NCBI GenBank assembly: GCA_037893225.1
Contig: JAZGUH010000272.1
Span: forward strand, 1,302,001 to 1,366,000
Direction: 5' to 3'
Length of the DNA: 64,000 nucleotides
DNA from: Hippasteria phrygiana
Lineage: Eukaryota > Echinodermata > Asteroidea > Valvatida > Goniasteridae
Part shown: positions 1-33,745 of the stretch, one piece after another
How the letters are laid out: the number at the start of each line of letters is the position of its first letter
Numbering within the stretch: position 1 is the stretch's first letter
Position numbers and translations under genes: made by a program
Notes under the pieces: generated by a model
Seen by the model: only the letters and a program-made list of their open reading frames with translations
Database searches by the model: none
Told to the model about the DNA's origin: nothing

Positions 1-1
1 T

Positions 2-3000
2 CTATCGGCCATAAAAAAGAACGAAGCGCTTTATAAAAATTTACGATCAAAGTCTAAAGAATCGTTAGAACATTTAATCGCGGATAAGCATATTCCGCTG
101 GGCGATCCTACCGGAAGAAGGGGTCAGCACATTAAAAAAGATTTAGAATCCGCCATACGACGATACTATAAAAAACCCGACGAAGAACTCGTCCCCTTGA
201 TTTTTAACGAAACAGCTCCGAGACCATTCAGAAATTATTTGCGTAATTACGAGATGAATATCGACAGAATTCTCGTAGATCCTCTAGCATTTTTTAATGA
301 AAACGAGCAAAAAATTGTAGAAACATTGAAAGGTGCGCTAAACGAATTTAGAAGCTTTAAATTTCAACTCGCATTAAAAGCGACGTTGAGAAAATATAAT
401 CTTGCGAACGATACTTTTGTCGAAGACGCGAGCATGTTTTTTGGGTCTCAATCGACCGTATTAAACGAAGACGAAATAGAAAACCAAGTACGAGAACAGA
501 TAGAGTTCATAATCGAAAAAATAGAGCACTTTCAAACAAACGGAAGCGGTTGGGTCATTTACGATTTAAAGGCGCTCTACATCAACGTTTCTAGATATCA
601 GCCGATAAGAGGCAGTTCCTACATTCCACTACCCCCTCACATAGCGCATAAAAAGGCAGTCGTCAATGTTAAAAACGAAGATCAACGATGTATCAGATGG
701 GCGTTGAGAGCCGCTTTAGAGTTATTTAAACCCTCCGTCAAAGAATCGATTAAAAACAACCCCAACTATAATATTCACTACGAAAGGAATTCTATCTTCG
801 AAGAAGATGATGGATTAGATTTTAAGAACGTAGCGTTTCCAACTCCCATCGCGGATATTGGTAAGATCGAAAAACAGAACAATCTCGCCATTAACGTTTT
901 TGGTTACGAAAATAATATTTTCCCTCTGAGATTAACTACTCAACGAAAACCGGCCATCAATCTACTGATGTTTTCAAAAGGAGATAATAATCATTATTGT
1001 TGGATAAAAAACCTCGACCGCTTGTTGTCTAAAGAAACTAAACATAAAGAACGCAAATATTTTTGTACGAGATGCTTGCAACATTTTTCGAGACAAGATA
1101 TTTTAGACAGACACGAGATAGATTGTATAGGCGTTTGCCAAACCCCGGCTTTAGCGGTATTACCCGACTCAACCAACGACGTTCTAAAATTCAAAAACTT
1201 TAAAAATAAACAACCGGCGCCTTTTACTATATACGCCGACTTTGAAAGTATCTTAGTTCCACTCCGCGGTGAAGGCGGGTCCACGAAAAAGACTCACGAA
1301 CACGAAGCTTGCGGTTACGCGTATATAGTAATCGGGCCCGACGGGCGAGTCCTAGGCGATCCTCAAATTTATAGAGGAGCGAACGCGACATCACATTTCT
1401 TAACCCGTTTACTAGGCGAAAAAGACAAGATCAACGAAATATTCTCAAATCCTAAACCCCTCGCCTACACGCCCGAAGATGCCAAAGTTCACAACGACGC
1501 CGACACCTGCTGGATTTGCGAGAGATCGATTTACCCAACACACGCGAGTAATTGTCAATGTTACAAGCCCGTAGAACCCAAAAGTAAAAAAGAACTGAAA
1601 GAATACTCGCACGAAAACAAAAAGGGATACGTCGAGAAAACATGTATGTTATGCCAAAAGAAAATTAACGCGTTTAGAAAAGTCAGAGACCACTGCCACA
1701 TCACCGGCAAGTACAGAGGAGCCGCGCACATGTGCTGTAACTTAAAATTACAGATCGTACCTAACAAAACGACGATACCGGTCATCTTTCACAACTTAGA
1801 AAATTACGACGCCCATTTGATTATGCAGAGTATTTCTGAAACCGACGGAAAACTAAAGTGTATAGCTAAAACGTCCGAAAAATATATTTCATTTTCGATA
1901 GGCCAACTCAGATTTTTAGATTCATTTAATTTCTTATCCACGTCGTTGGAACGATTGGTAGCCGCGTGTCCGATAGACGCGTTTAAGTATATCGATAAAG
2001 CCGTTGTGCCTAGAACCGTCAGCCCCGCGCACGAAGACGTTGACGCGAGTGCTCTAGAGACGGCGATAGATCCAAACGAAGACGAAGTTAACGATTACAA
2101 CGTAATCGGAAAACTGATAACCTACTTGGCGGACGACAAAACAGTTTTAGACGACGAAGTTGACGAGTCCATACCCGACGGAAACGACGAGAGGTTACCC
2201 GACGACAAACGAGATCTTCTTTTGAAAAAGGGTGTATATCCCTACGAGTATATGGACAGCTTTGAACGATTTAACGAGAGAAAACTACCGGCTAAGAAGC
2301 ATTTTTACAGCTCTCTTTCGGACAAACATATAAGCGACTCTGACTATGAACACGCTAAAAAAGTATGGCGAACCTTCGGCATCAAAAACTTGGGCGAATA
2401 TCACGACCTCTACGTATTGACCGATGTACTATTACTATCCAGCGTATTCGAGAATTTTAGAGAAATCTGTAGAGAGAATTATAAGTTGGATCCGTGCCAT
2501 TATTTTACATCGCCCGGCCTAAGTTGGGACGCTTTATTAAAACACTCTAAAGCCAACTTAGAACTCTTGAGGGATATAGACCAACATTTATTCGTAGAGA
2601 AAGGAACCAGAGGGGGAATATCTAGCGTGGGCTCATGTAGATACGCCGAAGCCAATAATAAGTATCTAGCTTCTTACGATCCGAGCAAACCCAACTCGTA
2701 TATTTCGTATCTAGACGCCAACAACCTCTACGGATGGGCCATGAGCCAACCATTACCGATCTCAGACTTTAGGTGGATCGACGAAAAGAAATTAGACCTG
2801 TTTACCGCCGAATATATAGAGTCTCTAGCCGACGACTCTTTTTGGGGCTATATTCTCGAAGTTGATTTAGACTATCCGGACGAACTACACGATCTACACA
2901 ACGGTTATCCTTTAGCGCCCGAGAACCTAATCATACCGCCGGAATCGATGAGTCCTTATCAGCTCGACCTGTTGGAAAAAACGGGAGCGAAACCGTCGAA

Positions 3001-3994
3001 CGAAACTAAGTTGGTAGCGACGGGCGGACCGAGAAAGAATTACGTACTCCACTATAGAAATCTAAAATTTTACCTCGCTCACGGTTTAGAACTAAAGAAA
3101 GTATGTAGGGTTTTAAAGTTTAAACAAACGCCTTGGATGAAATCTTACATCGACAAAAATACCCGATTGAGAACGGAAGCTAAATCCGACTTCGAAAAAG
3201 ACTTTTTTAAATTGATGAACAACTCAGTATTTGGTAAAACTATGGAAGACGTTAGAAAGCGAATGAACACTCATTTATGCAGAGCCCACGAAGAAGATAG
3301 AATTATTCGTTTGGTGGCCAAACCCAGTTATAGCGGTAGAACAATTTTTGAGCGTTGTAATCTTTTGATGATAAACATGTCGAAGACGCGAGTTGTTTTA
3401 AACAAACCCGTCTATTGCGGTATGAGTATTTTAGACTTATCGAAGCTTTTAATGTACGAATTTTATTACGACAAGTTGAAAAAGACTTACGAAGACAAAG
3501 TCGATTTGATTTATACCGATACGGACTCGTTGCTCTTACGTATCGAAACTGAAGACCTTTATCTCGACATGGCGAGCGAGAAAGACGACTACGATTTTAG
3601 CAATTACGAGAAAGACCACTTTTTATACGACGATTCAAACAAGAAAGTTATCGGTAAATTTAAGGACGAATGCGGCGGAAAACCTATCAAAGAAGTGGTT
3701 TGTATCAGATCAAAAATGTACTCCATCTATATGGACGATAAGAAGAACATTAAGAAATCGAAAGGAGTCAAAAGGTACGTCGTTGCCAACGCGATAACTC
3801 ATCAAGATTATAAAGACTGCCTGTTTAACTCTACGGTTTATCGACACGATATGAACACGTTGAGGAGCGACAAACATATCGTGAACTCTTTAACTCAAAA
3901 TAAAGTGTCTTTAAATCCCAGAGACGACAAACGGTATATCTTAGACGACGGAATTCATACCCTGATGCACGATCATTACGCTACACGCGCGTAA
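2..3994 (+). CDS. Type-B DNA polymerase, Polinton/adintovirus type (5' cut by window)
   Basis: The reading frame is open from base 2 and lacks only the first 50 residues present in the complete copy at 10008-14150. The apparent start at 197 is a TTG codon inside the protein, so it is not the real start. All domains listed for the complete copy are present: a C2H2-like finger, the exonuclease motif with YADFES, an endonuclease VII-like Cys/His insert, the LDANNLYGWAMSQPLP motif A, the NNSVFGKT motif B and the YTDTDS motif C. The gene runs towards the element core and ends 240 bp before the zinc/death-fold gene. It has no introns and no disabling change, so it is either recently inserted or maintained by conversion with the other arm. 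Confidence 0.93.
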   Translation, partial: LSAIKKNEALYKNLRSKSKESLEHLIADKHIPLGDPTGRRGQHIKKDLESAIRRYYKKPDEELVPLIFNETAPRPFRNYLRNYEMNIDRILVDPLAFFNENEQKIVETLKGALNEFRSFKFQLALKATLRKYNLANDTFVEDASMFFGSQSTVLNEDEIENQVREQIEFIIEKIEHFQTNGSGWVIYDLKALYINVSRYQPIRGSSYIPLPPHIAHKKAVVNVKNEDQRCIRWALRAALELFKPSVKESIKNNPNYNIHYERNSIFEEDDGLDFKNVAFPTPIADIGKIEKQNNLAINVFGYENNIFPLRLTTQRKPAINLLMFSKGDNNHYCWIKNLDRLLSKETKHKERKYFCTRCLQHFSRQDILDRHEIDCIGVCQTPALAVLPDSTNDVLKFKNFKNKQPAPFTIYADFESILVPLRGEGGSTKKTHEHEACGYAYIVIGPDGRVLGDPQIYRGANATSHFLTRLLGEKDKINEIFSNPKPLAYTPEDAKVHNDADTCWICERSIYPTHASNCQCYKPVEPKSKKELKEYSHENKKGYVEKTCMLCQKKINAFRKVRDHCHITGKYRGAAHMCCNLKLQIVPNKTTIPVIFHNLENYDAHLIMQSISETDGKLKCIAKTSEKYISFSIGQLRFLDSFNFLSTSLERLVAACPIDAFKYIDKAVVPRTVSPAHEDVDASALETAIDPNEDEVNDYNVIGKLITYLADDKTVLDDEVDESIPDGNDERLPDDKRDLLLKKGVYPYEYMDSFERFNERKLPAKKHFYSSLSDKHISDSDYEHAKKVWRTFGIKNLGEYHDLYVLTDVLLLSSVFENFREICRENYKLDPCHYFTSPGLSWDALLKHSKANLELLRDIDQHLFVEKGTRGGISSVGSCRYAEANNKYLASYDPSKPNSYISYLDANNLYGWAMSQPLPISDFRWIDEKKLDLFTAEYIESLADDSFWGYILEVDLDYPDELHDLHNGYPLAPENLIIPPESMSPYQLDLLEKTGAKPSNETKLVATGGPRKNYVLHYRNLKFYLAHGLELKKVCRVLKFKQTPWMKSYIDKNTRLRTEAKSDFEKDFFKLMNNSVFGKTMEDVRKRMNTHLCRAHEEDRIIRLVAKPSYSGRTIFERCNLLMINMSKTRVVLNKPVYCGMSILDLSKLLMYEFYYDKLKKTYEDKVDLIYTDTDSLLLRIETEDLYLDMASEKDDYDFSNYEKDHFLYDDSNKKVIGKFKDECGGKPIKEVVCIRSKMYSIYMDDKKNIKKSKGVKRYVVANAITHQDYKDCLFNSTVYRHDMNTLRSDKHIVNSLTQNKVSLNPRDDKRYILDDGIHTLMHDHYATRA

Positions 3995-4234
3995 TGAGCG
4001 AGTATCGAACAGTCGTATAGGAATACAGGCTGCCTTCTAACATCGTATAGTAATACTCACTTTTTAACGTCGTATATACCACTCGCATTCTAACGTCGTA
4101 TAGGATACTCCCTACGGTCGTAGCTACGCGAGTACATCAGAGGAGCGAACGCGACAGGGAAACCCCTCTTTACGAAAAATGAAATAATAAAAAAAATGAG
4201 AAAAAAAATAATAAAATAATTAAATATATAAATC
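3995..4234 (+). promoter_or_regulatory. Polymerase 3' spacer with short repeats and A-rich leader
   Basis: About 27-30 bp imperfect repeats, each beginning near TCGTATA and often ending TTCTAAC, occupy roughly 4008-4120 (four units). A stretch at 4139-4157 repeats a word also found inside the polymerase gene near 1374. Bases 4180-4234 are almost pure A/T with runs of A directly before the next ATG. This resembles the A-rich early promoters of cytoplasmic DNA viruses in composition only; no defined motif is proven. The same spacer occurs inverted at 9768-10007. Confidence 0.5.
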
Positions 4235-5182
4235 ATGTGCAAGTGGTTAAACATCGGAAAGCTAACTACGTGCGAAAAGGATGGAGACCCGTGGTGCCTC
4301 GATCATTTCTACCTACGAAGCCTAGCGCCTAAACCGTGTTTAATTTGTGGCTGCGGAGTTAGATCAACTACGCAATGTTGTACGAAACATTCTTTAGATG
4401 CCGCGATATCTTTTGATACTCCCGGCGGCGCGAGTACTAGCGCAACGAGACCAACTAATTTAAATGTAAAGGATAAGTATTACGATATTTTTGTGGATGT
4501 AGCTAATAAATGTAGATTGTACGACGATACTATAAAAATGCCAGACGTTATAATCGATCATGAAGAGAATATTTTTCTCATGTTGAACGAAATTGCTATA
4601 ACAGCGATTATACGAGTTGGGTTTGCTCGTATCGCGATCTTTATGGGAATAAATGTAGAATTCTTAGAGTACATCGAGTCGTCTAAGTATAATCATTATA
4701 CAAAAGTTAGAATGATAACGTATATTTGGTATCTCAAGGCATGTTTCGATAAAGACTATAAACAAGACCTCAAGAACATTTTGATCAGCTCCGGACTAAC
4801 TCTATATACTTACAAGTTGAAATTCTTCGAAACTAGATCTAGAAATGTCGCTAACGACGCTGACTATAGCTATGCCTATGGATATATGGGTCCGTTGACG
4901 CCGACTTATTTGATAAGTATAGGTATAATGGGTACTTTAACGAAATTAGCCGATGAATTAGGTATAGATTGGAGACAATTTTGCATGTACGCCGGAATGA
5001 ACTATGATTGCGTAGAACAAATAGATGACGATTATAAAGAAACGACCGAAAAAGCTTTTATGGCCTGTTATAAATTTTATTCAGATCATAGGAATTACGA
5101 CGATATAAATACTATATTTCGTCGCATCATGTATCATATAGGAAGATCGGATTTAGCTATAGCGTATAACGACGTCTTTTGA
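4235..5182 (+). CDS. Zinc-module protein with two predicted death-fold domains
   Basis: 315 residues. Residues 1-52 form a Cys/His module (C2, C13, C21, H24, C35, C38, C40, C48 or C49, H52) that is near-identical to the start of the protein at 9234-9767. After a Gly/Ser/Thr-rich linker (about 55-75) come two helical regions that read as death-fold domains. The first (about 113-190) has the pattern ARIAIFMGINVEFLEYIE. The second (about 222-310) has ELGIDWRQF, then YDCVEQID, and ends HIGRSDLA, the classic DWR...I...GR.DLA layout of death domains. Death domains mediate homotypic assembly in apoptotic and innate immune signalling, so interference with host death signalling is the natural inference; the function is not shown. 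The ATG follows an A-rich leader. The domain calls come from pattern reading only. Confidence 0.8.
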   Translation: MCKWLNIGKLTTCEKDGDPWCLDHFYLRSLAPKPCLICGCGVRSTTQCCTKHSLDAAISFDTPGGASTSATRPTNLNVKDKYYDIFVDVANKCRLYDDTIKMPDVIIDHEENIFLMLNEIAITAIIRVGFARIAIFMGINVEFLEYIESSKYNHYTKVRMITYIWYLKACFDKDYKQDLKNILISSGLTLYTYKLKFFETRSRNVANDADYSYAYGYMGPLTPTYLISIGIMGTLTKLADELGIDWRQFCMYAGMNYDCVEQIDDDYKETTEKAFMACYKFYSDHRNYDDINTIFRRIMYHIGRSDLAIAYNDVF

Positions 5183-5205
5183 AAATATAAACCTCGCATC
5201 AGCTC

Positions 5206-5280
5206 ATCTGCAGTTATCTATAAGTCATCTATCAGTTATCTATCAGTTATCTATCAGTCATCTATAGGTCATCTGGTTAT
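5206..5280. repeat. Short 11-bp repeat array before Rpb5-like copy 1
   Basis: Seven or so units of the ATCTAT-initiated 11-mer separate the death-fold gene from the convergent Rpb5-like gene. The last repeat supplies the stop codon of that gene (TCA at 5269-5271 on the plus strand). Confidence 0.85.
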
Positions 5281-5775
5281 AATTCTATAATATATTTCGT
5301 CGTTTCGTTTTATCCTAATCAATTGTCCGCATTTTGCTCCTATTAATTTTATAATTGGATCGGTAATTAATATTTTTGGTAATTTATCTTCGGCAATATT
5401 ATATTCGGATAGTATATTTTTTTTTTCAGCGTCGGTACAAATCTCGTGCGGTACTACTAGATCGTGACTAAATATATCTATAGATAATTCATCTCTGGTA
5501 AAACATTGTATATTAATATTTCCAATTTTATTTATTGTATCTATGGTATTCTTTGCCCAAGGTGTAGGTTTTTCTTTAGCAACTAAAATGATATAATTTA
5601 ATCCTAGAGCTTTTATTTCTTTATAAATATCTCTGAGATTTACTCCTAGTTTTTGATTTTCTATATCTATATATAGTAAATTTGAATCTATTTTAGATAA
5701 TAAAACGCATTTGTATTTCGAAGGTATTTGTTTACCTGGATAATCATATCCCCTAATTTTGCATAGTCTTTGCAT
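5269..5775 (-). CDS. Rpb5-like RNA polymerase subunit, copy 1
   Basis: 168 residues. The C-terminal half (about 92-168) carries the Rpb5/RPABC1 (archaeal RpoH) signature: FSHDLVVPHE, then LPKILITDPI, then GAKCGQLIRIKR and YYRI. The N-terminal half also fits the eukaryotic Rpb5 jaw-type domain (CKIRGYDYP, KLGVNLRDIYKEI, then TPWAKNTI). It is shorter than cellular Rpb5 (about 210 residues) mainly at the N-terminus. Rpb5 is a shared subunit of nuclear RNA polymerases, and nucleocytoplasmic large DNA viruses carry homologues. The ATG is preceded by an A/T-rich leader with an in-frame stop in this copy. The gene is convergent with the death-fold gene. An identical protein is encoded at 7431-7937, so the gene was duplicated together with its flanking array. 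Confidence 0.88.
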   Translation of the reverse strand: MQRLCKIRGYDYPGKQIPSKYKCVLLSKIDSNLLYIDIENQKLGVNLRDIYKEIKALGLNYIILVAKEKPTPWAKNTIDTINKIGNINIQCFTRDELSIDIFSHDLVVPHEICTDAEKKNILSEYNIAEDKLPKILITDPIIKLIGAKCGQLIRIKRNDEIYYRIITR

Positions 5776-5832
5776 TTTATTTTTTTAAAAAGAAATAATA
5801 AACAATTCTTTTTTTACCTAGATAAACTTGAA

Positions 5833-7433
5833 GGTCATCTATCAGGTATCTATCAGGTAATCTATAGGTCATCTATCAGGTATCTATCAGGTATCTATCA
5901 GTTATCTATCAGTTATCTATCAGTTATCTATCAGGTATCTATAGGTCATCTATCAGGTATCTATAGATCATCTATCAGTTATCTATAGGTCATCTATCAG
6001 GTATCTATCAGTTATCTATCAGGTATCTATAGATCATCTATCAGGTATCTATCAGGTATCTATAGGTCATCTATCAGTTATCTATCAGGTATCTATCAGT
6101 TATCTATCAGTTATCTATCAGGTATCTATAGGTCATCTATCAGTTATCTATCAGGTATCTATCAGTTATCTATCAGCTAGCTATAAGTCATCTATCAGCT
6201 AGCTATAAGTCATCTATCAGCTAGCTATAAGTCATCTATCAGCTAGCTATAAGTCATCTATCAGCTAGCTATAAGTCATCTATCAGTTATCTATAGGTCA
6301 TCTATCAGGTATCTATCAGTTATCTATCAGTTATCTATCAGGTATCTATAGGTCATCTATCAGTTATCTATCAGGTATCTATCAGTTATCTATCAGTTAT
6401 CTATCAGGTATCTATAGGTCATCTATCAGTTATCTATCAGGTATCTATCAGTTATCTATCAGCTAGCTATAAGTCATCTATCAGCTAGCTATAAGTCATC
6501 TATCAGCTAGCTATAAGTCATCTATCAGCTAGCTATAAGTCATCTATCAGCTAGCTATAAGTCATCTATCAGTTATCTATAGGTCATCTATCAGGTATCT
6601 ATCAGTTATCTATCAGTTATCTATCAGGTATCTATAGGTCATCTATCAGTTATCTATCAGGTATCTATCAGTTATCTATCAGTTATCTATCAGGTATCTA
6701 TAGGTCATCTATCAGGTATCTATAGGTCATCTATCAGGTATCTATCAGTTATCTATCAGTTATCTATCAGTTATCTATCAGGTATCTATAGATCATCTAT
6801 CAGGTATCTATAGGTCATCTATCAGGTATCTATAGGTCATCTATCAGGTATCTATCAGGTATCTATCAGTTATCTATCAGTTATCTATCAGTTATCTATC
6901 AGGTATCTATAGATCATCTATCAGGTATCTATCAGGTATCTATCAGTTATCTATCAGCTAGCTATAAGTCATCTATCAGCTAGCTATAAGTCATCTATCA
7001 GCTAGCTATAAGTCATCTATCAGCTAGCTATAAGTCATCTATCAGCTAGCTATAAGTCATCTATCAGTTATCTATAGGTCATCTATCAGGTATCTATCAG
7101 TTATCTATCAGTTATCTATCAGGTATCTATAGGTCATCTATCAGTTATCTATCAGGTATCTATCAGTTATCTATCAGTTATCTATCAGGTATCTATAGGT
7201 CATCTATCAGGTATCTATAGGTCATCTATCAGTTATCTATCAGGTATCTATCAGTTATCTATCAGCTAGCTATAAGTCATCTATCAGCTAGCTATAAGTC
7301 ATCTATCAGCTAGCTATAAGTCATCTATCAGCTAGCTATAAGTCATCTATCAGCTAGCTATAAGTCATCTATCAGTTATCTATAGGTCATCTATCAGGTA
7401 TCTATCAGTTATCTATCAGTCATCTATAGGTCA
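5833..7433. repeat. Array A of 11-bp tandem repeats
   Basis: About 145 units with a strict 11-bp period. Nearly all are one of six words: ATCTATCAGGT, ATCTATCAGTT, ATCTATAGGTC, ATCTATAGATC, ATCTATCAGCT and AGCTATAAGTC. The last two alternate in blocks of five pairs, and larger blocks of the series recur, giving higher-order structure. The word contains TATC (GATA on the minus strand) every helical turn. Since 11 is not a multiple of three, open frames through it are incidental. Confidence 0.95.
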
Positions 7434-7937
7434 TCTGGTTATAATTCTATAATATATTTCGTCGTTTCGTTTTATCCTAATCAATTGTCCGCATTTTGCT
7501 CCTATTAATTTTATAATTGGATCGGTAATTAATATTTTTGGTAATTTATCTTCGGCAATATTATATTCGGATAGTATATTTTTTTTTTCAGCGTCGGTAC
7601 AAATCTCGTGCGGTACTACTAGATCGTGACTAAATATATCTATAGATAATTCATCTCTGGTAAAACATTGTATATTAATATTTCCAATTTTATTTATTGT
7701 ATCTATGGTATTCTTTGCCCAAGGTGTAGGTTTTTCTTTAGCAACTAAAATGATATAATTTAATCCTAGAGCTTTTATTTCTTTATAAATATCTCTGAGA
7801 TTTACTCCTAGTTTTTGATTTTCTATATCTATATATAGTAAATTTGAATCTATTTTAGATAATAAAACGCATTTGTATTTCGAAGGTATTTGTTTACCTG
7901 GATAATCATATCCCCTAATTTTGCATAGTCTTTGCAT
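7431..7937 (-). CDS. Rpb5-like RNA polymerase subunit, copy 2
   Basis: Encodes the same 168 residues as the gene at 5269-5775, including the Rpb5 C-terminal signature (HDLVVPHE, LPKILITDP, GAKCGQLIRIKR). A longer frame beginning with TTG at 7967 exists only because a single T-to-A change removes an upstream stop. The ATG at 7937, shared with copy 1, is the better start. Both copies lack disabling changes. The stop codon again lies in the 11-bp repeat. Having two intact copies suggests a dosage effect or simple repeat-mediated duplication; which one is unknown. Confidence 0.87.
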   Translation of the reverse strand: MQRLCKIRGYDYPGKQIPSKYKCVLLSKIDSNLLYIDIENQKLGVNLRDIYKEIKALGLNYIILVAKEKPTPWAKNTIDTINKIGNINIQCFTRDELSIDIFSHDLVVPHEICTDAEKKNILSEYNIAEDKLPKILITDPIIKLIGAKCGQLIRIKRNDEIYYRIITR

Positions 7938-7995
7938 TTTATTTTTTAAAAAAGAAATAATAAACAATTCTTTTTTTACCTAGATAAACTTGAAG

Positions 7996-9240
7996 GTCAT
8001 CTATCAGGTATCTATCAGGTAATCTATAGGTCATCTATCAGGTATCTATCAGGTATCTATCAGTTATCTATCAGTTATCTATCAGTTATCTATCAGGTAT
8101 CTATAGGTCATCTATCAGGTATCTATAGATCATCTATCAGTTATCTATAGGTCATCTATCAGGTATCTATCAGTTATCTATCAGGTATCTATAGATCATC
8201 TATCAGGTATCTATCAGGTATCTATAGGTCATCTATCAGTTATCTATCAGGTATCTATCAGTTATCTATCAGTTATCTATCAGGTATCTATAGGTCATCT
8301 ATCAGTTATCTATCAGGTATCTATCAGTTATCTATCAGCTAGCTATAAGTCATCTATCAGCTAGCTATAAGTCATCTATCAGCTAGCTATAAGTCATCTA
8401 TCAGCTAGCTATAAGTCATCTATCAGCTAGCTATAAGTCATCTATCAGTTATCTATAGGTCATCTATCAGGTATCTATCAGTTATCTATCAGTTATCTAT
8501 CAGGTATCTATAGGTCATCTATCAGTTATCTATCAGGTATCTATCAGTTATCTATCAGTTATCTATCAGGTATCTATAGGTCATCTATCAGTTATCTATC
8601 AGGTATCTATCAGTTATCTATCAGCTAGCTATAAGTCATCTATCAGCTAGCTATAAGTCATCTATCAGCTAGCTATAAGTCATCTATCAGCTAGCTATAA
8701 GTCATCTATCAGCTAGCTATAAGTCATCTATCAGTTATCTATAGGTCATCTATCAGGTATCTATCAGTTATCTATCAGTTATCTATCAGGTATCTATAGG
8801 TCATCTATCAGTTATCTATCAGGTATCTATCAGTTATCTATCAGTTATCTATCAGGTATCTATAGGTCATCTATCAGGTATCTATAGGTCATCTATCAGG
8901 TATCTATCAGTTATCTATCAGTTATCTATCAGTTATCTATCAGGTATCTATAGATCATCTATCAGGTATCTATAGGTCATCTATCAGGTATCTATAGGTC
9001 ATCTATCAGGTATCTATCAGGTATCTATCAGTTATCTATCAGTTATCTATCAGTTATCTATCAGGTATCTATAGATCATCTATCAGGTATCTATAAGTCA
9101 TCTATCAGCTAGCTATAAGTCATCTATCAGCTAGCTATAAGTCATCTATCAGCTAGCTATAAGTCATCTATAAGTCATCTATAAGTCATCTATCAGCTAG
9201 CTATAGATCATCTATCAGGTATCTATAAGCCATCTATAGA
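7996..9240. repeat. Array B of 11-bp tandem repeats
   Basis: About 113 units from the same six-word set as array A and in the same orientation, starting with the same word order. The right end becomes irregular (runs of ATCTATAAGTC) and runs into the stop codon of the zinc protein gene at 9234. Confidence 0.95.
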
Positions 9241-9767
9241 TCAAAAAATCTGCGCTCTTTACGACTTGGGTGTCGAAATTTTAATACCGAATTTGATTTA
9301 ACGTTATTACTACTATGCTCAATTTTATTACACTTGGTACAATTACCATTTTTAGAAAAAGTACCACAGCCGCAGCGGCCGCAGGGGGTTAAGGCTCTAC
9401 CAATTGTTTTAAAACGATTCGCATGCATATCGCAATATCTGGGGTCACACTTTGAGGTCGGTTTATTGCAGAGTTTTGGGCTACTACAAAGCAACCAAGT
9501 GCATCGACATTTTTCGGGGTTAGATTTAAAGTAGAGTTCTTTTATAACTCTTTTATACTTGGTTTTAGCCAGCTTTTCGACGCGTTCTAGTTGCTGTCTT
9601 TCGTTTAAAGCATGATTCGCACAAAGTTGCGTAGTTGATTTAGTTCCGCAGCCACAAATTAAACACGGTTTAGGCGCTAGGCTTCGTAGGTAGAAATGAT
9701 CGAGGCACCACGGGTCTCCATCCTTTTCGCACGTAGTTAGCTTTCCGATGTTTAACCACTTGCACAT
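9234..9767 (-). CDS. Two-module zinc protein sharing its N-terminus with the death-fold protein
   Basis: 177 residues. Residues 1-41 are identical to those of the protein at 4235-5182 because the inverted repeat arm covers them; the rest differs. Two related Cys/His modules are visible. Module 1 has C13, C21, H24, C35, C38, C40, C49 and H52. Module 2 has C107, C112, H115, C129, C132, C134, C143 and C146. Both contain PC..CGCGT, so the protein arose by internal duplication. A basic helical linker (about 55-85) and a basic tail (about 165-174, RHPSRKERR) suggest nucleic-acid binding, which is inference. I do not recognise the family. The stop codon falls at the edge of the 11-bp array. Confidence 0.82.
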   Translation of the reverse strand: MCKWLNIGKLTTCEKDGDPWCLDHFYLRSLAPKPCLICGCGTKSTTQLCANHALNERQQLERVEKLAKTKYKRVIKELYFKSNPEKCRCTWLLCSSPKLCNKPTSKCDPRYCDMHANRFKTIGRALTPCGRCGCGTFSKNGNCTKCNKIEHSSNNVKSNSVLKFRHPSRKERRFFDL

Positions 9768-10007
9768 GATTTATATATTTAATTATTTTATTATTTTTTT
9801 TCTCATTTTTTTTATTATTTCATTTTTCGTAAAGAGGGGTTTCCCTGTCGCGTTCGCTCCTCTGATGTACTCGCGTAGCTACGACCGTAGGGAGTATCCT
9901 ATACGACGTTAGAATGCGAGTGGTATATACGACGTTAAAAAGTGAGTATTACTATACGATGTTAGAAGGCAGCCTGTATTCCTATACGACTGTTCGATAC
10001 TCGCTCA
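9768..10007 (-). promoter_or_regulatory. Inverted copy of polymerase spacer and A-rich leader
   Basis: Mirror image of 3995-4234. It contains the same degenerate TCGTATA repeats and the A/T-only leader immediately before the zinc gene ATG. Identity with the other arm means both zinc genes share one upstream control sequence. Confidence 0.5.
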
Positions 10008-13000
10008 TTACGCGCGTGTAGCGTAATGATCGTGCATCAGGGTATGAATTCCGTCGTCTAAGATATACCGTTTGTCGTCTCTGGGATTTAAAGACACTTT
10101 ATTTTGAGTTAAAGAGTTCACGATATGTTTGTCGCTCCTCAACGTGTTCATATCGTGTCGATAAACCGTAGAGTTAAACAGGCAGTCTTTATAATCTTGA
10201 TGAGTTATCGCGTTGGCAACGACGTACCTTTTGACTCCTTTCGATTTCTTAATGTTCTTCTTATCGTCCATATAGATGGAGTACATTTTTGATCTGATAC
10301 AAACCACTTCTTTGATAGGTTTTCCGCCGCATTCGTCCTTAAATTTACCGATAACTTTCTTGTTTGAATCGTCGTATAAAAAGTGGTCTTTCTCGTAATT
10401 GCTAAAATCGTAGTCGTCTTTCTCGCTCGCCATGTCGAGATAAAGGTCTTCAGTTTCGATACGTAAGAGCAACGAGTCCGTATCGGTATAAATCAAATCG
10501 ACTTTGTCTTCGTAAGTCTTTTTCAACTTGTCGTAATAAAATTCGTACATTAAAAGCTTCGATAAGTCTAAAATACTCATACCGCAATAGACGGGTTTGT
10601 TTAAAACAACTCGCGTCTTCGACATGTTTATCATCAAAAGATTACAACGCTCAAAAATTGTTCTACCGCTATAACTGGGTTTGGCCACCAAACGAATAAT
10701 TCTATCTTCTTCGTGGGCTCTGCATAAATGAGTGTTCATTCGCTTTCTAACGTCTTCCATAGTTTTACCAAATACTGAGTTGTTCATCAATTTAAAAAAG
10801 TCTTTTTCGAAGTCGGATTTAGCTTCCGTTCTCAATCGGGTATTTTTGTCGATGTAAGATTTCATCCAAGGCGTTTGTTTAAACTTTAAAACCCTACATA
10901 CTTTCTTTAGTTCTAAACCGTGAGCGAGGTAAAATTTTAGATTTCTATAGTGGAGTACGTAATTCTTTCTCGGTCCGCCCGTCGCTACCAACTTAGTTTC
11001 GTTCGACGGTTTCGCTCCCGTTTTTTCCAACAGGTCGAGCTGATAAGGACTCATCGATTCCGGCGGTATGATTAGGTTCTCGGGCGCTAAAGGATAACCG
11101 TTGTGTAGATCGTGTAGTTCGTCCGGATAGTCTAAATCAACTTCGAGAATATAGCCCCAAAAAGAGTCGTCGGCTAGAGACTCTATATATTCGGCGGTAA
11201 ACAGGTCTAATTTCTTTTCGTCGATCCACCTAAAGTCTGAGATCGGTAATGGTTGGCTCATGGCCCATCCGTAGAGGTTGTTGGCGTCTAGATACGAAAT
11301 ATACGAGTTGGGTTTGCTCGGATCGTAAGAAGCTAGATACTTATTATTGGCTTCGGCGTATCTACATGAGCCCACGCTAGATATTCCCCCTCTGGTTCCT
11401 TTCTCTACGAATAAATGTTGGTCTATATCCCTCAAGAGTTCTAAGTTGGCTTTAGAGTGTTTTAATAAAGCGTCCCAACTTAGGCCGGGCGATGTAAAAT
11501 AATGGCACGGATCCAACTTATAATTCTCTCTACAGATTTCTCTAAAATTCTCGAATACGCTGGATAGTAATAGTACATCGGTCAATACGTAGAGGTCGTG
11601 ATATTCGCCCAAGTTTTTGATGCCGAAGGTTCGCCATACTTTTTTAGCGTGTTCATAGTCAGAGTCGCTTATATGTTTGTCCGAAAGAGAGCTGTAAAAA
11701 TGCTTCTTAGCCGGTAGTTTTCTCTCGTTAAATCGTTCAAAGCTGTCCATATACTCGTAGGGATATACACCCTTTTTCAAAAGAAGATCTCGTTTGTCGT
11801 CGGGTAACCTCTCGTCGTTTCCGTCGGGTATGGACTCGTCAACTTCGTCGTCTAAAACTGTTTTGTCGTCCGCCAAGTAGGTTATCAGTTTTCCGATTAC
11901 GTTGTAATCGTTAACTTCGTCTTCGTTTGGATCTATCGCCGTCTCTAGAGCACTCGCGTCAACGTCTTCGTGCGCGGGGCTGACGGTTCTAGGCACAACG
12001 GCTTTATCGATATACTTAAACGCGTCTATCGGACACGCGGCTACCAATCGTTCCAACGACGTGGATAAGAAATTAAATGAATCTAAAAATCTGAGTTGGC
12101 CTATCGAAAATGAAATATATTTTTCGGACGTTTTAGCTATACACTTTAGTTTTCCGTCGGTTTCAGAAATACTCTGCATAATCAAATGGGCGTCGTAATT
12201 TTCTAAGTTGTGAAAGATGACCGGTATCGTCGTTTTGTTAGGTACGATCTGTAATTTTAAGTTACAGCACATGTGCGCGGCTCCTCTGTACTTGCCGGTG
12301 ATGTGGCAGTGGTCTCTGACTTTTCTAAACGCGTTAATTTTCTTTTGGCATAACATACATGTTTTCTCGACGTATCCCTTTTTGTTTTCGTGCGAGTATT
12401 CTTTCAGTTCTTTTTTACTTTTGGGTTCTACGGGCTTGTAACATTGACAATTACTCGCGTGTGTTGGGTAAATCGATCTCTCGCAAATCCAGCAGGTGTC
12501 GGCGTCGTTGTGAACTTTGGCATCTTCGGGCGTGTAGGCGAGGGGTTTAGGATTTGAGAATATTTCGTTGATCTTGTCTTTTTCGCCTAGTAAACGGGTT
12601 AAGAAATGTGATGTCGCGTTCGCTCCTCTATAAATTTGAGGATCGCCTAGGACTCGCCCGTCGGGCCCGATTACTATATACGCGTAACCGCAAGCTTCGT
12701 GTTCGTGAGTCTTTTTCGTGGACCCGCCTTCACCGCGGAGTGGAACTAAGATACTTTCAAAGTCGGCGTATATAGTAAAAGGCGCCGGTTGTTTATTTTT
12801 AAAGTTTTTGAATTTTAGAACGTCGTTGGTTGAGTCGGGTAATACCGCTAAAGCCGGGGTTTGGCAAACGCCTATACAATCTATCTCGTGTCTGTCTAAA
12901 ATATCTTGTCTCGAAAAATGTTGCAAGCATCTCGTACAAAAATATTTGCGTTCTTTATGTTTAGTTTCTTTAGACAACAAGCGGTCGAGGTTTTTTATCC

Positions 13001-14150
13001 AACAATAATGATTATTATCTCCTTTTGAAAACATCAGTAGATTGATGGCCGGTTTTCGTTGAGTAGTTAATCTCAGAGGGAAAATATTATTTTCGTAACC
13101 AAAAACGTTAATGGCGAGATTGTTCTGTTTTTCGATCTTACCAATATCCGCGATGGGAGTTGGAAACGCTACGTTCTTAAAATCTAATCCATCATCTTCT
13201 TCGAAGATAGAATTCCTTTCGTAGTGAATATTATAGTTGGGGTTGTTTTTAATCGATTCTTTGACGGAGGGTTTAAATAACTCTAAAGCGGCTCTCAACG
13301 CCCATCTGATACATCGTTGATCTTCGTTTTTAACATTGACGACTGCCTTTTTATGCGCTATGTGAGGGGGTAGTGGAATGTAGGAACTGCCTCTTATCGG
13401 CTGATATCTAGAAACGTTGATGTAGAGCGCCTTTAAATCGTAAATGACCCAACCGCTTCCGTTTGTTTGAAAGTGCTCTATTTTTTCGATTATGAACTCT
13501 ATCTGTTCTCGTACTTGGTTTTCTATTTCGTCTTCGTTTAATACGGTCGATTGAGACCCAAAAAACATGCTCGCGTCTTCGACAAAAGTATCGTTCGCAA
13601 GATTATATTTTCTCAACGTCGCTTTTAATGCGAGTTGAAATTTAAAGCTTCTAAATTCGTTTAGCGCACCTTTCAATGTTTCTACAATTTTTTGCTCGTT
13701 TTCATTAAAAAATGCTAGAGGATCTACGAGAATTCTGTCGATATTCATCTCGTAATTACGCAAATAATTTCTGAATGGTCTCGGAGCTGTTTCGTTAAAA
13801 ATCAAGGGGACGAGTTCTTCGTCGGGTTTTTTATAGTATCGTCGTATGGCGGATTCTAAATCTTTTTTAATGTGCTGACCCCTTCTTCCGGTAGGATCGC
13901 CCAGCGGAATATGCTTATCCGCGATTAAATGTTCTAACGATTCTTTAGACTTTGATCGTAAATTTTTATAAAGCGCTTCGTTCTTTTTTATGGCCGATAG
14001 AAAGTCTCGTCTGATATGTGTGCCGTCGCGTCCGGTTGGTGGGCCCAACGTAATGGCGTATTTGTCGATGTATTTTTTCAAGCTGTATTTTGGCCAACGT
14101 GTGTAGCCTATCGCTGGTATCATTCTGTTTTCCATCTTTATAATAGCCAT
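10008..14150 (-). CDS. Type-B DNA polymerase, Polinton/adintovirus type, complete
   Basis: 1,380 residues, single frame. The N-terminus carries a twin motif, LGPPTGRDGTHIRRD (about 35-49) and LGDPTGRRGQHIKKD (about 83-97). A C2H2-like finger (CTRCLQHF...H....C) lies near 405. The 3'-5' exonuclease motifs are YADFES (about 458), FHNLENYDAH (about 647) and YHDLYVLTD (about 850). A Cys/His insert with CHITGKYRGAAHMCCN (about 615) resembles the recombination endonuclease VII domain found in this polymerase family. Palm motifs are LDANNLYGW (about 953), NNSVFGKT (about 1122), YTDTDS (catalytic Asp at about 1223 and 1225) and KMY. Such polymerases replicate linear, usually protein-primed genomes of Polintons, adintoviruses and relatives. 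The start is the first ATG after an A/T-rich leader. No accompanying Polinton integrase, ATPase or capsid gene is in view. Confidence 0.94.
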   Translation of the reverse strand: MAIIKMENRMIPAIGYTRWPKYSLKKYIDKYAITLGPPTGRDGTHIRRDFLSAIKKNEALYKNLRSKSKESLEHLIADKHIPLGDPTGRRGQHIKKDLESAIRRYYKKPDEELVPLIFNETAPRPFRNYLRNYEMNIDRILVDPLAFFNENEQKIVETLKGALNEFRSFKFQLALKATLRKYNLANDTFVEDASMFFGSQSTVLNEDEIENQVREQIEFIIEKIEHFQTNGSGWVIYDLKALYINVSRYQPIRGSSYIPLPPHIAHKKAVVNVKNEDQRCIRWALRAALELFKPSVKESIKNNPNYNIHYERNSIFEEDDGLDFKNVAFPTPIADIGKIEKQNNLAINVFGYENNIFPLRLTTQRKPAINLLMFSKGDNNHYCWIKNLDRLLSKETKHKERKYFCTRCLQHFSRQDILDRHEIDCIGVCQTPALAVLPDSTNDVLKFKNFKNKQPAPFTIYADFESILVPLRGEGGSTKKTHEHEACGYAYIVIGPDGRVLGDPQIYRGANATSHFLTRLLGEKDKINEIFSNPKPLAYTPEDAKVHNDADTCWICERSIYPTHASNCQCYKPVEPKSKKELKEYSHENKKGYVEKTCMLCQKKINAFRKVRDHCHITGKYRGAAHMCCNLKLQIVPNKTTIPVIFHNLENYDAHLIMQSISETDGKLKCIAKTSEKYISFSIGQLRFLDSFNFLSTSLERLVAACPIDAFKYIDKAVVPRTVSPAHEDVDASALETAIDPNEDEVNDYNVIGKLITYLADDKTVLDDEVDESIPDGNDERLPDDKRDLLLKKGVYPYEYMDSFERFNERKLPAKKHFYSSLSDKHISDSDYEHAKKVWRTFGIKNLGEYHDLYVLTDVLLLSSVFENFREICRENYKLDPCHYFTSPGLSWDALLKHSKANLELLRDIDQHLFVEKGTRGGISSVGSCRYAEANNKYLASYDPSKPNSYISYLDANNLYGWAMSQPLPISDFRWIDEKKLDLFTAEYIESLADDSFWGYILEVDLDYPDELHDLHNGYPLAPENLIIPPESMSPYQLDLLEKTGAKPSNETKLVATGGPRKNYVLHYRNLKFYLAHGLELKKVCRVLKFKQTPWMKSYIDKNTRLRTEAKSDFEKDFFKLMNNSVFGKTMEDVRKRMNTHLCRAHEEDRIIRLVAKPSYSGRTIFERCNLLMINMSKTRVVLNKPVYCGMSILDLSKLLMYEFYYDKLKKTYEDKVDLIYTDTDSLLLRIETEDLYLDMASEKDDYDFSNYEKDHFLYDDSNKKVIGKFKDECGGKPIKEVVCIRSKMYSIYMDDKKNIKKSKGVKRYVVANAITHQDYKDCLFNSTVYRHDMNTLRSDKHIVNSLTQNKVSLNPRDDKRYILDDGIHTLMHDHYATRA

Positions 14151-14545
14151 TTATTTTATTTTAAAAATAAATATAACTTTTTTTGATCCAAGAAATAGAG
14201 AGAGAGGTTTGGGGTTTTTGGTTTTTTTTTTTTGCAAGAGAATTTTAAGGTGATTATGATACAGGTGGGGCTGTAGGAAAAATAGTTCGATTTTATCGAT
14301 TTTTACAAAAATTTGCTGTGGGTATATACAGCGAAATTTGTTAAAAATCAGAAGAGTCTTAGAACGCTATGTTTTTCCAATTTTTTTTAAATTTTTATAA
14401 AAATTTGGTGTGGGTAGATACAGCGAAATTTGAGAGAAATCGAGAGAGAGAGAGGGAGAGAGAGAGAAATTTGAGGTTTTGAGATTTTAGGGTTTTTTTC
14501 TTCAAATTTTTACAGAAATTTGGTGTGGGTATATACAGCAATTTT
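14151..14545. repeat. Outer flank of the polymerase arm with three related segments
   Basis: An A/T-rich leader (14151-14200) is followed by three copies of a segment containing AAATTTG(G/C)TGTGGGTA and ATACAGCGAAATTT near 14308, 14400 and 14517, plus GA-rich runs. The segments could be part of the element terminus or of the target DNA. No coding potential is seen. LINE coding sequence begins shortly after the third copy. Confidence 0.6.
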
Positions 14546-16292
14546 GAAAGTGGTCCAGTATCCCCCTTCTCTACTACTCCACTTCCCTTTTGAAAAAGGG
14601 ATCAGACAAGGATGTCCCCTTTCTGGTTTACTTTACTCCATAGCTATGGAACCTTTCTTGCATACTCTTAGACGTAAAATTAATAAGTATGGTCTCTGTA
14701 TTCCAGAGAGTGACAATTATCTTGTTACCTCTGCCTATGCAGATGATGTTTCTATTTTTATAACTAATGATAATGGTTTTGATATTGTTAAAGATGTATA
14801 TAATTTATTCAGCAAGTCTTCTGCTGCTTGTTTAAATGAACAGAAATCTCAAGGACTTTGGGTCGGTTCGTGGCTTAATAGAACTGATAAACCCTTAAAC
14901 TTTCAATGGAATAATCAAGGTCTTAACTTCCTCGGAGTTCAATTAGGAAACTCTAACAGTTACATTCAACAAAATTGGCAAATTTGTCTGAAAAAACTTG
15001 AAAATGTTCTCAATCGCTGGAAAGGCCTGTCGAAGTTTCTTTCCTTTAGAGGTAAAGTTTTAATAGCTAACCAATTAGCCACCTCGAAACTTCTTCATGT
15101 ACTTGCTGTCCTTTCCCCTCATAAGGATATCCTAAGTGAACCCCAGAGGAAGCTTATAAATTGTATATGGTCTGATGGCCGACATTGGCTGAAAGAAAAA
15201 ATCTTGTATCAAACTCCTGACAAGGGAGTTTTAGGTTTAACCTGCCTCCATGCACGTACTCTTACCTTTCGTTACAATATCATACAAACATTTCTTAATA
15301 AATCCGCTCATCCTGTTTTTAAATTCACGAGTTACTTTCTACGACAATATCGTAAACTCCATTTTGATCTTAAATTCTTCCTTCTCAAACCTGAGGTCAT
15401 TTTTCTGACCCATCTTCCTGTCTATTACAGTGATACAGTACGTGCATGGAAAACGATGACAGCTCAAATTGTTGTACCACCTGATTCTATTAACTTTGTA
15501 ATGAATTTACCTTTGAATTCTATTTTTTTTGATAATATCACTGAGAATGACCAGCTCCTTTCGCCTCGGCTTCTGTCGTGTAGAATACAAACGGTGGAAG
15601 ACCTGATGGACAAGGAGTCCGGGAAATGGAAAGCTGCGAACGACTTCACTGCAGACAACTTTCTTCGCAGAGCGTCATCCAGACTGTTTCAAGCAGAGCT
15701 CGACAAGGTTTGCCGCTCCCTCATACACATTTTCCCACACTTCTTCAACGCGTCTGGCTATCGACTTCCTATTCGTCACTTACAAGACATCATGGACTTT
15801 TCCGAACTACCACTTCAAGTCGTCATACCTCCGGACACTGACATAACCAACGCCCCTTCTAAACTCATCTACGAAACCATGAATGATGAACTGAACAATT
15901 TGAAGGATCCTGTTAAAACCTACTGGCATGAACAGGAAATCATTCCTCCAACCAAAAGCATTCAATGGAAGGAACTGTATTGTCAGCCGTCTTCCAAAAA
16001 GGAGGGGAACATTCAGTTTCGTTGACTTCATAATATTCTGCCGAGCTTGGCCGTCCTTCATCATATCAACCCCGAATTTTCATCTTCATGTACCTGGTGT
16101 GGCGATAAAGGGACAACAATTCACTTGTTTATAGAATGTCCTGCTATTCAGCCAGCCCTCAACTTCCTGCCCTGTCTACTCAACCGGCTCTTCTCTGACC
16201 TAACACAAAATTTCTACCTCTACTGGTCCCTGCTTCCACACGGCAGAGGTCGAGCAAAGGAGATGGTCCATCTTGCTAATTATTCTTTATAA
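14545..16292 (+). pseudogene. 5'-truncated L1/Tx1-type LINE ORF2 with one in-frame stop
   Basis: The frame starts inside the reverse transcriptase (GIRQGCPLSG, then AYADDVSIF) and continues through the thumb and connection region to a C-terminal Cys/His knuckle (CTWCGDKGTTIHLFIECP) typical of L1 and Tx1 LINEs. It lacks the endonuclease and the first part of the reverse transcriptase, so it is a 5'-truncated insertion. A TGA at 16023-16025 interrupts the frame and reading continues in the same frame to 16292; the stop most simply replaces a Trp codon. The 5' junction abuts the outer flank of the virus-like element. No tail or target duplication was identified. Confidence 0.85.
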
Positions 16293-17100: not shown

Positions 17101-17368
17101 AATTGAAATAAGGTGACAATTATGGGGGCTGGTCCGGGAATATGCAACACTCAGCCTGTACCGACAAAACAATAAAACAGAGGATTAGAACACAAATCAT
17201 AGTTCAATTTAACTTATGGTGTCCTGTTTTTGTGTGTCTCTGTCTCTCCTAATATATTCTGTTTCGCTTAATCCGATTGGTTGAAATCTCTAATTTTCAA
17301 TTTCCCGGACAAGCCCCCATAATTGAAATATGGTGACAATTATGGGGGCTGGTCCGGGAATATGCAAC
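17101..17368. repeat. Direct 48-bp repeats around a 195-bp TIR sequence
   Basis: A 48-bp sequence starting AATTGAAATA and ending GGGAATATGCAAC occurs at 17101-17148 and again at 17321-17368 with one mismatch. Between them, GGGGGCTGGTCCGGGA (17124) and TCCCGGACAAGCCCCC (ending 17318) form an inverted pair, as for a miniature DNA transposon of 17124-17318. The right-hand pair also makes a 21-bp-arm hairpin around 17303-17361. Confidence 0.75.
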
Positions 17369-17388
17369 CTGGCCTGCTATACTTTATA

Positions 17389-33504: not shown

Positions 33505-33745
33505 ATTGAGTGATCCCCACAATGTCGCTTCCCAGGTTGTATCGTATAATTGGGTGTGATCCCTGATTATACGGCATTCTGGGTTTATGACTTCTGACTA
33601 GCACCCACCCGAACAAAGATACTGACAATTTAGGAGACTGCCAACATAGGGCAAGATAGCTCAGTTGGTAGAGCGCCGGTACGGTATTCCGGAGGTCGCA
33701 GGTTCGAATCCCGCTCCTGTCAGTTTTCTTTGTTCACTTTGAAAA
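33505..33745 (+). repeat. SINE-like repeat with tRNA-like module
   Basis: A ~145-bp body is followed by a 73-nt tRNA-like sequence (about 33651-33723) with A box TAGCTCAGTTGG and B box GGTTCGAATCC. The acceptor arms GACAAGA-like and TCCTGTC nearly pair, but the anticodon arm has a mismatch and no T at position 33. The same body and tRNA-like module recur at 58772-58995, so it is a repeat family rather than a single-copy tRNA gene. Confidence 0.75.

What the first reader, a model, noticed from the sequence alone, without database searches (positions are those of the whole stretch)
1..14545. Virus-like element combining inverted polymerase genes, Rpb5-like subunit and death-fold protein
Two identical inverted arms each carry a full Polinton/adintovirus-type DNA polymerase gene. 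They flank a core with an RNA polymerase subunit homologue (Rpb5), a protein with two predicted death-fold domains, a paired zinc-module protein and 2.9 kb of 11-bp repeats. Rpb5 is known from nucleocytoplasmic large DNA viruses, which use a different polymerase lineage; this polymerase type belongs to Polinton-like elements, which are not known to encode RNA polymerase subunits. The gene content therefore looks like a chimeric or undescribed lineage. Capsid, ATPase, protease and integrase are missing, so it may be a fragment, a satellite-like derivative, or the fused ends of a larger genome.
Basis: partly seen in the sequence, partly recalled or inferred. Interest (0 to 1): 0.92.

Follow-up and report, generated by a model that had tools for sequence, protein, structure and literature searches.

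The report
Capsidless satellite of virus-like transposons
A family of virus-related jumping genes in what seems to be an animal genome carries its own DNA-copying enzyme and borrowed gene-reading parts, but no shell or insertion enzyme, and seems to use those of a fuller relative living in the same genome.

Summary
The window holds all but 576 bp of a 15,155-bp element with 4,934-bp terminal inverted repeats (TIRs), each carrying an adintovirus/Polinton-type polymerase (PolB) gene. It interrupts a LINE reverse-transcriptase ORF and has a 5-bp target duplication. It is one of at least 33 Rpb5-bearing loci in a 944-Mb genome. In 10 of 10 copies whose ends I read, both tips, a duplication and nearly identical outer TIRs are present. 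Misassembly, fragment and 'fused ends of a larger genome' are excluded.

The element lacks integrase, capsid candidate and ATPase. The same genome holds fuller Polinton-like elements with these genes, and sister satellites carrying VLTF3-like and PCNA-like genes. Tips (AGTAGTA) and 5-bp duplications are shared. In the loci searched, cargo genes and helper genes never occurred together. One hybrid with a helper-type left end and a satellite-type right end sits between copies of one duplication. I conclude these are self-replicating Polinton satellites, integrated in trans by the helper integrase (suggested, not shown). Rpb5 is certain; its role is inferred. One death domain is supported, the second is not.

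The parts
1..4357 (.). Left TIR (inner 4,357 bp; its outer 577 bp lie left of the window, tip at C272:1301424)
   Evidence: identical to 9645-14001 reverse complement, first mismatch 4358; left tip in L026
9645..14578 (.). Right TIR, 4,934 bp, ending ...TACTACT-3'
2..3994 (+). PolB gene, left copy (start lies outside the window)
   Evidence: homologues
10008..14150 (-). PolB gene, right copy, 1,380 aa, with an endonuclease-VII-like zinc region and invariant polymerase and exonuclease residues
   Evidence: Pfam only Endonuclease_7 at 21.5 bits, below cut-off; motif names recalled
4235..5182 (+). Zinc module + helical region + death domain protein, 315 aa
5269..5775 (-). Rpb5-like gene, copy 1
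7431..7937 (-). Rpb5-like gene, copy 2, identical protein (duplicated block 5204-7086 / 7365-9237)
5832..9237 (.). 11-bp tandem repeats, interrupted by Rpb5 copy 2
9234..9767 (-). Protein with two CGCG zinc modules, 177 aa; N-terminal part identical to that of the death protein
14291..14550 (.). Sub-terminal repeats (GTGTGGGTATATACAGC...) in the TIR
14579..14583 (.). Right copy of the 5-bp target duplication CCACT
14579..16025 (+). Host LINE reverse-transcriptase ORF interrupted by the element
   Evidence: Pfam RVT_1; flanks joined without the element read as a 626-aa open frame across the junction

Best explanation
The element is a member of a dispersed family of capsidless, integrase-less Polinton satellites. 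Shown: units of 12.2-15.2 kb with shared tips and 5-bp target duplications; in the window copy two 4,934-bp TIRs that each hold a PolB gene; in ten copies outer TIRs nearly identical within a copy but different between copies. Shown: fuller Polinton-like elements with rve integrase and A32-like ATPase in the same genome, with the same tip and duplication length. Inferred: the satellite replicates its own linear DNA from the tips with its own PolB, and replication keeps the two TIRs identical. It is inserted by the integrase of the fuller elements acting in trans, and may also borrow their capsid (it is somewhat smaller than they are). The long TIR arose when the PolB-bearing end of a Polinton was copied onto the other end, replacing the capsid and integrase half. 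The cargo (Rpb5, VLTF3-like and PCNA-like genes in varying sets) directs transcription or replication to the element. For Rpb5 the most likely route is entry into the host's RNA polymerases through its intact assembly domain, with a shortened jaw part. The death-domain protein, shared with the fuller elements, most likely blunts a host death-domain pathway.
For: At least 33 Rpb5 loci, 28 of them with a stop-free match over residues 1-167 or 1-168. 10 of 10 copies read have both tips, a 5-bp duplication (one ambiguous, 5-7) and outer-TIR identity 99.8-100% over 1.1-1.6 kb, against 90.2-99.8% between copies. Tip AGTAGTA and 5-bp duplications also in the two fuller elements found at both ends (C728 15,954 bp; C643 17,795 bp) and the two VLTF3/PCNA satellites found at both ends (C20, C607). 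Hybrid C92: helper-type left tip and PolB, satellite-type right tip and PolB, one duplication CGTAG. Clean split of genes: Rpb5, VLTF3 and PCNA in 0 of 12 helper pieces; integrase, ATPase, capsid candidate and two more helper proteins in 0 of 15 VLTF3/PCNA-satellite and hybrid pieces, 0 of 36 Rpb5-satellite pieces and not in the window element. rve and A32 above Pfam cut-offs in the fuller elements tested. Over PolB residues 780 onward satellites are 91% or more identical to each other and 60-62% to helpers, while the death protein is 70-90% identical between satellites and helpers, so genes are exchanged. pN/pS 0.22 for Rpb5 and 0.45 for the death gene in 8 copies each. CpG o/e 1.3-1.8 in element genes versus 0.5-1.1 in most flanks.
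Against: No experiment. No sight of replication, excision or particles. The helper's capsid was not confirmed (0 Pfam families for the candidate; PDB matches only at E>=0.59 and unrelated). The window PolB itself misses Pfam's PF03175. The duplication is 5 bp, not the 6 bp recalled for Polintons. Trans use of the integrase rests on shared tips and one hybrid, which could have formed in other ways. Full TIRs were read only in the window copy, and the interiors of the other nine type-A copies were not read in full, so an integrase in an unread part is not excluded there. The 10 copies were chosen because their gene spacing looked complete; the 8-copy pN/pS sets are the best-matching copies. Some ends were not found (C182 none, C881 none, C883, C70 and C257 one). 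One flank bin has CpG 1.29 and the AT-rich tip region only 1.02. The Rpb5 role rests on homology alone.
Confidence: 0.74

Rival explanations
1. Decayed Polintons: simple deletion derivatives that lost their structural half and persist passively, with the cargo genes as debris.
For: Integrase and capsid candidate are absent; 5 of 33 Rpb5 loci have a shifted frame; some death-gene rows are fragments.
Against: 28 of 33 Rpb5 loci are stop-free over the whole query; Rpb5, VLTF3-like and PCNA-like genes have no match in 12 helper pieces, so they are gains, not leftovers; substitutions lean to silent sites; outer TIRs are near identical, so these copies moved recently.
Confidence: 0.12
2. An independent virus lineage with its own, unrecognised integration enzyme, unrelated in mobility to the co-resident Polintons.
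For: PolB of satellites and helpers is only 60-62% identical over residues 780 onward; the zinc and helical parts have no known function.
Against: Shared tip and 5-bp duplication, the C92 hybrid, and exchange of the death gene; no integrase-like ORF in the window element.
Confidence: 0.1
3. A satellite of a giant virus rather than of the Polintons (virophage- or transpoviron-like), carrying Rpb5, VLTF3-like and PCNA-like genes so as to be transcribed in a cytoplasmic factory.
For: The cargo is typical of large DNA viruses (Pfam VLTF3 4.5e-25, PCNA_N 4.7e-8; megavirus encodes RPB5, PCNA and TBP, PMC11464507, passage seen); the one outside Rpb5 match (P0001) lies on a 463-kb contig of unknown kind; the element's Rpb5 is only 42% identical over 31 aa to the host Rpb5 exon found.
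Against: Five pattern-based scans of viral contigs gave no relative of PolB or Rpb5 (patterns can miss); the window Rpb5 scores lower with the ASFV subunit (16 bits) than with plant or animal ones; the mobility marks tie it to the Polintons.
Confidence: 0.15
4. Assembly artefact (palindromic or chimeric contig).
For: Long identical inverted arms are a common artefact (general knowledge).
Against: 10 of 10 copies on nine contigs with different flanks and duplications; empty site reads open.
Confidence: 0.01

Closest known systems
Polinton/Maverick transposons
   Same: PolB of the adintovirus/Polinton kind, TIRs beginning AG, target duplication; co-resident relatives have rve integrase and A32-like ATPase
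   Different: No integrase, capsid candidate or ATPase in the satellite; PolB lies inside ~4.9-kb TIRs and is therefore present twice; 5-bp instead of the recalled 6-bp duplication; Rpb5, death-domain and zinc genes
Adintoviruses (Adintoviridae)
   Same: Related PolB (an OTU-like N-terminal domain defines theirs, PMC11071296, passages; here only inferred from a conserved Cys and His); adintovirus-like contigs L005/L008 carry TBP and TFIIB; Amoebidium adintoviruses carry VLTF3 (PMC11244446, passages)
   Different: No hexon, penton, protease or integrase found in the satellite
Transpovirons and virophages
   Same: Parasites that live with and depend on a larger virus (PMC11464507, abstract and passages; partly recalled)
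   Different: Here the presumed helper is an endogenous Polinton, and the parasite keeps its own PolB
Phage satellites (P4, PICI)
   Same: Own replication genes, borrowed packaging (recalled, not tested)
   Different: Eukaryotic genome, TIR-ended element
Inverted-end defective genomes of adenoviruses
   Same: One end of a protein-primed linear genome copied to the other end (recalled, not tested)
   Different: Here inherited and multiplied as a family

Membership tests
Polinton/Maverick (autonomous) | Protein-primed-type family B polymerase | tested here: met
   1,206 homologues at E<=1e-3 among 7,992 scored, many of the 120 listed with PF03175 or PF02945; conserved residues. Against: the window protein itself gives no PF03175 match
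Polinton/Maverick (autonomous) | rve integrase | tested here: not met
   absent from the window element; present in co-resident fuller elements
Polinton/Maverick (autonomous) | TIRs with AG start (recalled) | tested here: met
   10 of 10 copies begin AGTAGTA
Polinton/Maverick (autonomous) | 6-bp target duplication (recalled) | tested here: not met
   5 bp in 9 of 10 type-A copies, the tenth ambiguous (5-7) in a C run; 5 of 5 others 5 bp
Polinton/Maverick (autonomous) | A32-like ATPase and capsid proteins | tested here: not met
   no such ORF or match in the window element; ATPase in fuller elements, whose capsid candidate is unconfirmed
Adintovirus | PolB with OTU-like domain plus BLAST-recognisable hexon and chromodomain integrase (PMC11071296) | tested here: not met
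   related PolB; integrase and capsid candidate absent; OTU-like domain not tested by profile
Nucleocytoplasmic large DNA virus | Own lineage of family B polymerase, major capsid, primase-helicase | tested here: not met
   of the usual genes only Rpb5 here, VLTF3/PCNA in sister satellites
Non-autonomous transposon using a partner's integrase | Shared ends and duplication length with an autonomous partner | tested here: met
Non-autonomous transposon using a partner's integrase | Integrase shown to act in trans | not testable with these tools
   suggested only by hybrid C92
Rpb5 family | C-terminal assembly domain | tested here: met
   PF01191 9.1e-20, residues 100-165 of 168, above cut-off
Death domain | Six-helix death fold | tested here: inconclusive
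   second domain: Pfam Death in 9 of 9 relatives, best 6.1e-6, window copy below cut-off, best PDB match 0.15; first domain no match

The most novel reading that the evidence does not exclude
These are true molecular parasites of endogenous viruses in an animal: capsidless satellites that keep their own replicase in duplicate inside giant TIRs, steal the integrase (and perhaps the capsid) of Polintons, swap genes with them, and carry a changeable cargo of transcription and replication parts (Rpb5, VLTF3, PCNA) with which they compete for the polymerase, a eukaryotic counterpart of phage satellites.
Probability: 0.45. Interest if true: 0.94.

Novelty: new variant of a known kind. Interest (0 to 1): 0.86.

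Why it matters
It offers a multi-copy, recent and largely intact case of a satellite-helper pair among Polinton-like elements, with a natural hybrid that tests end recognition. It places an RNA polymerase subunit, a poxvirus-type late transcription factor and a sliding clamp in elements with adintovirus-type polymerase, which bears on the debated link between Polintons and large DNA viruses. If TIRs are identical at insertion, as the data suggest, each copy can be dated much as LTRs are.

Tried and rejected
Viral contigs: five pattern-based scans (PolB alone, PolB alignment, Rpb5 alone, Rpb5 alignment, P0001) found no relative. PolB versus the phage collection: no match. Death protein versus 5.8 billion proteins: none at E<=0.01 among 605 candidates. 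Structure of the death protein: pLDDT 34, not used. Misassembly, fused ends and fragment: rejected. Recent host retrocopy as source of Rpb5: unlikely, 42% identity over 31 aa to the host exon found. My first reading that Rpb5 and VLTF3 belong to two separate satellite types was too neat: a late check found VLTF3 beside Rpb5 in C464 and C76. PolB and VLTF3 copy counts in the genome could not be made (tool not answered). Starrett et al. 2021 and the Krupovic-Koonin 2015 review are not held; what I say of Polinton tips and 6-bp duplications is recalled.
Full report
What is there. The inverted arms are terminal inverted repeats of 4,934 bp without a mismatch: 4,357 bp inside the window and an outer 577 bp, on the left outside it (L026). 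The element runs from C272:1301424 to 1316578, 15,155 bp. Its tips read AGTAGTA...TACTACT, and it is flanked by CCACT on both sides. The flanks joined without the element, keeping one CCACT, read as one 626-aa open frame of a LINE reverse transcriptase. The element is therefore a complete insertion, not a fragment or a misassembly.

Genes. PolB is 1,380 aa and intact, with 1,206 relatives at E<=1e-3 among 7,992 scored candidates; the 120 listed include named entries from a sea slug, a coral, an anemone and a snake. Pfam gives it only a sub-threshold Endonuclease_7 match (21.5 against 23.6 bits) and no PF03175, though many listed relatives carry PF03175. In trees it falls with P0002, P0003 and the other PolB types of this genome in a clade with full support, apart from the other relatives sampled (74 of the 120 listed, 19). 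Rpb5 is beyond doubt and lies twice in this copy, with identical proteins. The only outside match in a word-limited search of 5.8 billion proteins (33 candidates scored) is P0001 (37% identity). The death protein carries a zinc module and a C-terminal death domain; the domain is matched in 9 of 9 relatives, but the window's own copy is below Pfam's cut-off (19.1 against 22.6 bits). A second death domain is not supported. The zinc protein has two CGCG modules, the first shared with the death protein. Beyond base 4357 the two genes continue as diverged relatives of each other for some 40 bp, which suggests that the arms are kept alike by copying up to a point inside homologous genes. The same module precedes an adintovirus-type PolB in L009, an independent contig.

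A family. The Rpb5 query gave 39 rows in the genome: 29 stop-free rows over residues 1-167 or 1-168 (28 loci, since the window's element has two; two of the 28 are some residues shorter) and 10 partial rows that make 5 further loci with a shifted frame (my count). The death query gave 126 scored rows of 292 candidates, of which 31 match only the zinc module (my count), so these are lower bounds. I fetched both ends of 10 copies whose spacing looked complete. All 10 have both tips and a duplication (5 bp in nine; 5-7 bp, ambiguous, in a C run at C103a). Sizes are 12,193-15,155 bp. Outer-TIR identity within a copy is 99.8-100% over 1.1-1.6 kb, against 90.2-99.8% between copies. Full TIRs were compared only in the window copy.

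Relatives in the same genome. I fetched ten death-gene loci without an Rpb5 row. Five (C728, C643, C881, C70, C257) are of the fuller, helper type: integrase, capsid candidate and two further virus-like proteins are found in them by tblastn, and the A32-like ATPase in C728, C643 and C881, whose further pieces were fetched. The integrases of C728 and C70 pass Pfam's rve cut-off, and the ATPases of C728 and C881 that of Pox_A32. C728 (15,954 bp) and C643 (17,795 bp) were found at both ends: TIRs of about 230 bp, tips AGTAGTATAG, duplications CACTG and AAAGT. C70 and C257 show the tip at the one end fetched. For C881 no outer end was found; its two pieces show the gene set twice in opposite directions. 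The other five (C20, C607, C182, C883 and the hybrid C92) carry VLTF3-like genes (Pfam 3.2e-24 to 4.5e-25 in the three tested) and PCNA-like genes (2.2e-8 and 4.7e-8 in the two tested). C20 and C607 have tips and 5-bp duplications at both ends and PolB toward each end; C883 shows its left tip; in C182 neither fetched end piece showed a tip. C883's death gene is interrupted by a retroelement.

Split of genes. Of 12 helper pieces, none matches Rpb5, VLTF3 or PCNA. Of 15 pieces of the VLTF3/PCNA group, 36 pieces from Rpb5-bearing copies and the window element, none matches the helper integrase, ATPase, capsid candidate or two further helper proteins (tblastn, E<=1e-4). Against a neat division among satellites, two Rpb5-bearing loci (C464, C76) also hold a VLTF3-like gene, and C149 a 29-aa stretch of one in its piece. 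The pieces do not cover the interiors of all copies.

The hybrid. C92:144564-157356 has at its left a helper-type tip, PolB (94-96% to helpers) and death gene, and at its right a satellite-type tip, PolB (91-97% to satellites), zinc, PCNA-like and VLTF3-like genes. It is flanked by CGTAG on both sides. Whatever enzyme inserted it seems to have accepted one end of each kind. With the shared tip and duplication length this is the best evidence for integration in trans.

Gene exchange. Over PolB residues 780 onward, satellites are 91% or more identical to each other and 60-62% to helpers; over the full length the window and C20 PolB are 83% identical. The death proteins are 70-93% identical with no such split; the low values come mostly from alignments that include the variable N-terminus. 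The death gene has probably moved between the types.

Age and selection. TIR identity says that the copies read are young. pN/pS over 28 pairs of 8 gene copies is 0.22 for Rpb5 (52 silent and 45 replacement differences summed; both window copies included) and 0.45 for the death gene (107 and 196). These are the best-matching copies and the pairs are not independent. CpG observed/expected is 1.3-1.8 in the genes, 1.02 in the AT-rich tip region and 0.16 in the 11-bp array; flanks gave 0.51-1.11, except one bin of 1.29. The element's make-up is unlike the host's.

How it probably works. PolB in each TIR with both tips present fits protein-primed replication of linear DNA, which would explain identical TIRs (inferred; no terminal protein was identified). 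Insertion by the helper's integrase is suggested strongly. Packaging in helper particles is only compatible with size. Rpb5 keeps its assembly domain (residues 100-165) and has a shortened N-terminal part, so entry into host polymerases is my first guess; service in a viral factory is the rival. The host Rpb5 exon found is 42% identical over 31 aa, so the gene is not a recent host copy.

Known context. L005 and L008, contigs binned with bacteria but carrying chromodomain integrase and adenain-like protease (the protease of L008 below the cut-off), each encode TBP and TFIIB homologues above Pfam cut-offs. VLTF3 in adintoviruses of Amoebidium is published (PMC11244446, passages seen). PMC11071296 (passages seen) describes genomes joining adintovirus-like PolB with poxvirus-like capsids. 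In the held library no paper combined Rpb5 with adintovirus, or adintovirus with TFIIB. The one paper with adintovirus and 'RNA polymerase subunit' speaks of a poxvirus there. Of the seven papers listed two were opened; the one that names both Polinton and Rpb5 speaks of a giant virus's own RPB5. One search listed 10 of 49 papers, none of the 10 with Rpb5. Most subscription papers are not held, so novelty is claimed only against these searches.

Noticed in passing
L005:8684-9906 and L008:5212-6479: Adintovirus-like contigs binned as bacterial MAGs encode neighbouring TBP and TFIIB homologues; no paper with adintovir* and TFIIB in the held library.
   Followed up: partly
L009:127-414: The CGCG zinc-module gene sits directly before an adintovirus-type PolB in an independent contig.
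   Followed up: partly
L002:5471-6339: Contig with adintovirus-type PolB also carries a Bro-N and a VRR-NUC-like ORF (the latter below cut-off).
   Followed up: no
L010 (C464) and L015 (C76): Rpb5-bearing copies that also hold a VLTF3-like gene, unlike the window copy.
   Followed up: partly
L055 and L068 (C881:186001-206000): Helper-type gene set occurs twice in opposite directions within 20 kb.
   Followed up: no
C326:626258-638072: Two Rpb5-bearing copies in opposite directions with only 5.6 kb between their zinc genes, too little for two full PolB arms.
   Followed up: no
C272:1442435-1444565: Another death/zinc-gene locus about 76 kb beyond the window's right end on the same contig.
   Followed up: no
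L048:4281-7280 (C883): A death gene of a VLTF3/PCNA-type element runs into a reverse-transcriptase frame (1,000-aa open frame); its remainder lies further on.
   Followed up: partly
window 17323-22091 and 45477-48905: Two copies of a LINE with a GDSL-like first ORF, the second spread over several frames.
   Followed up: no
window 43524-44069: Exon of a fibrinogen-domain gene.
   Followed up: no
window 33650-33722: tRNA-Thr (GGT).
   Followed up: no
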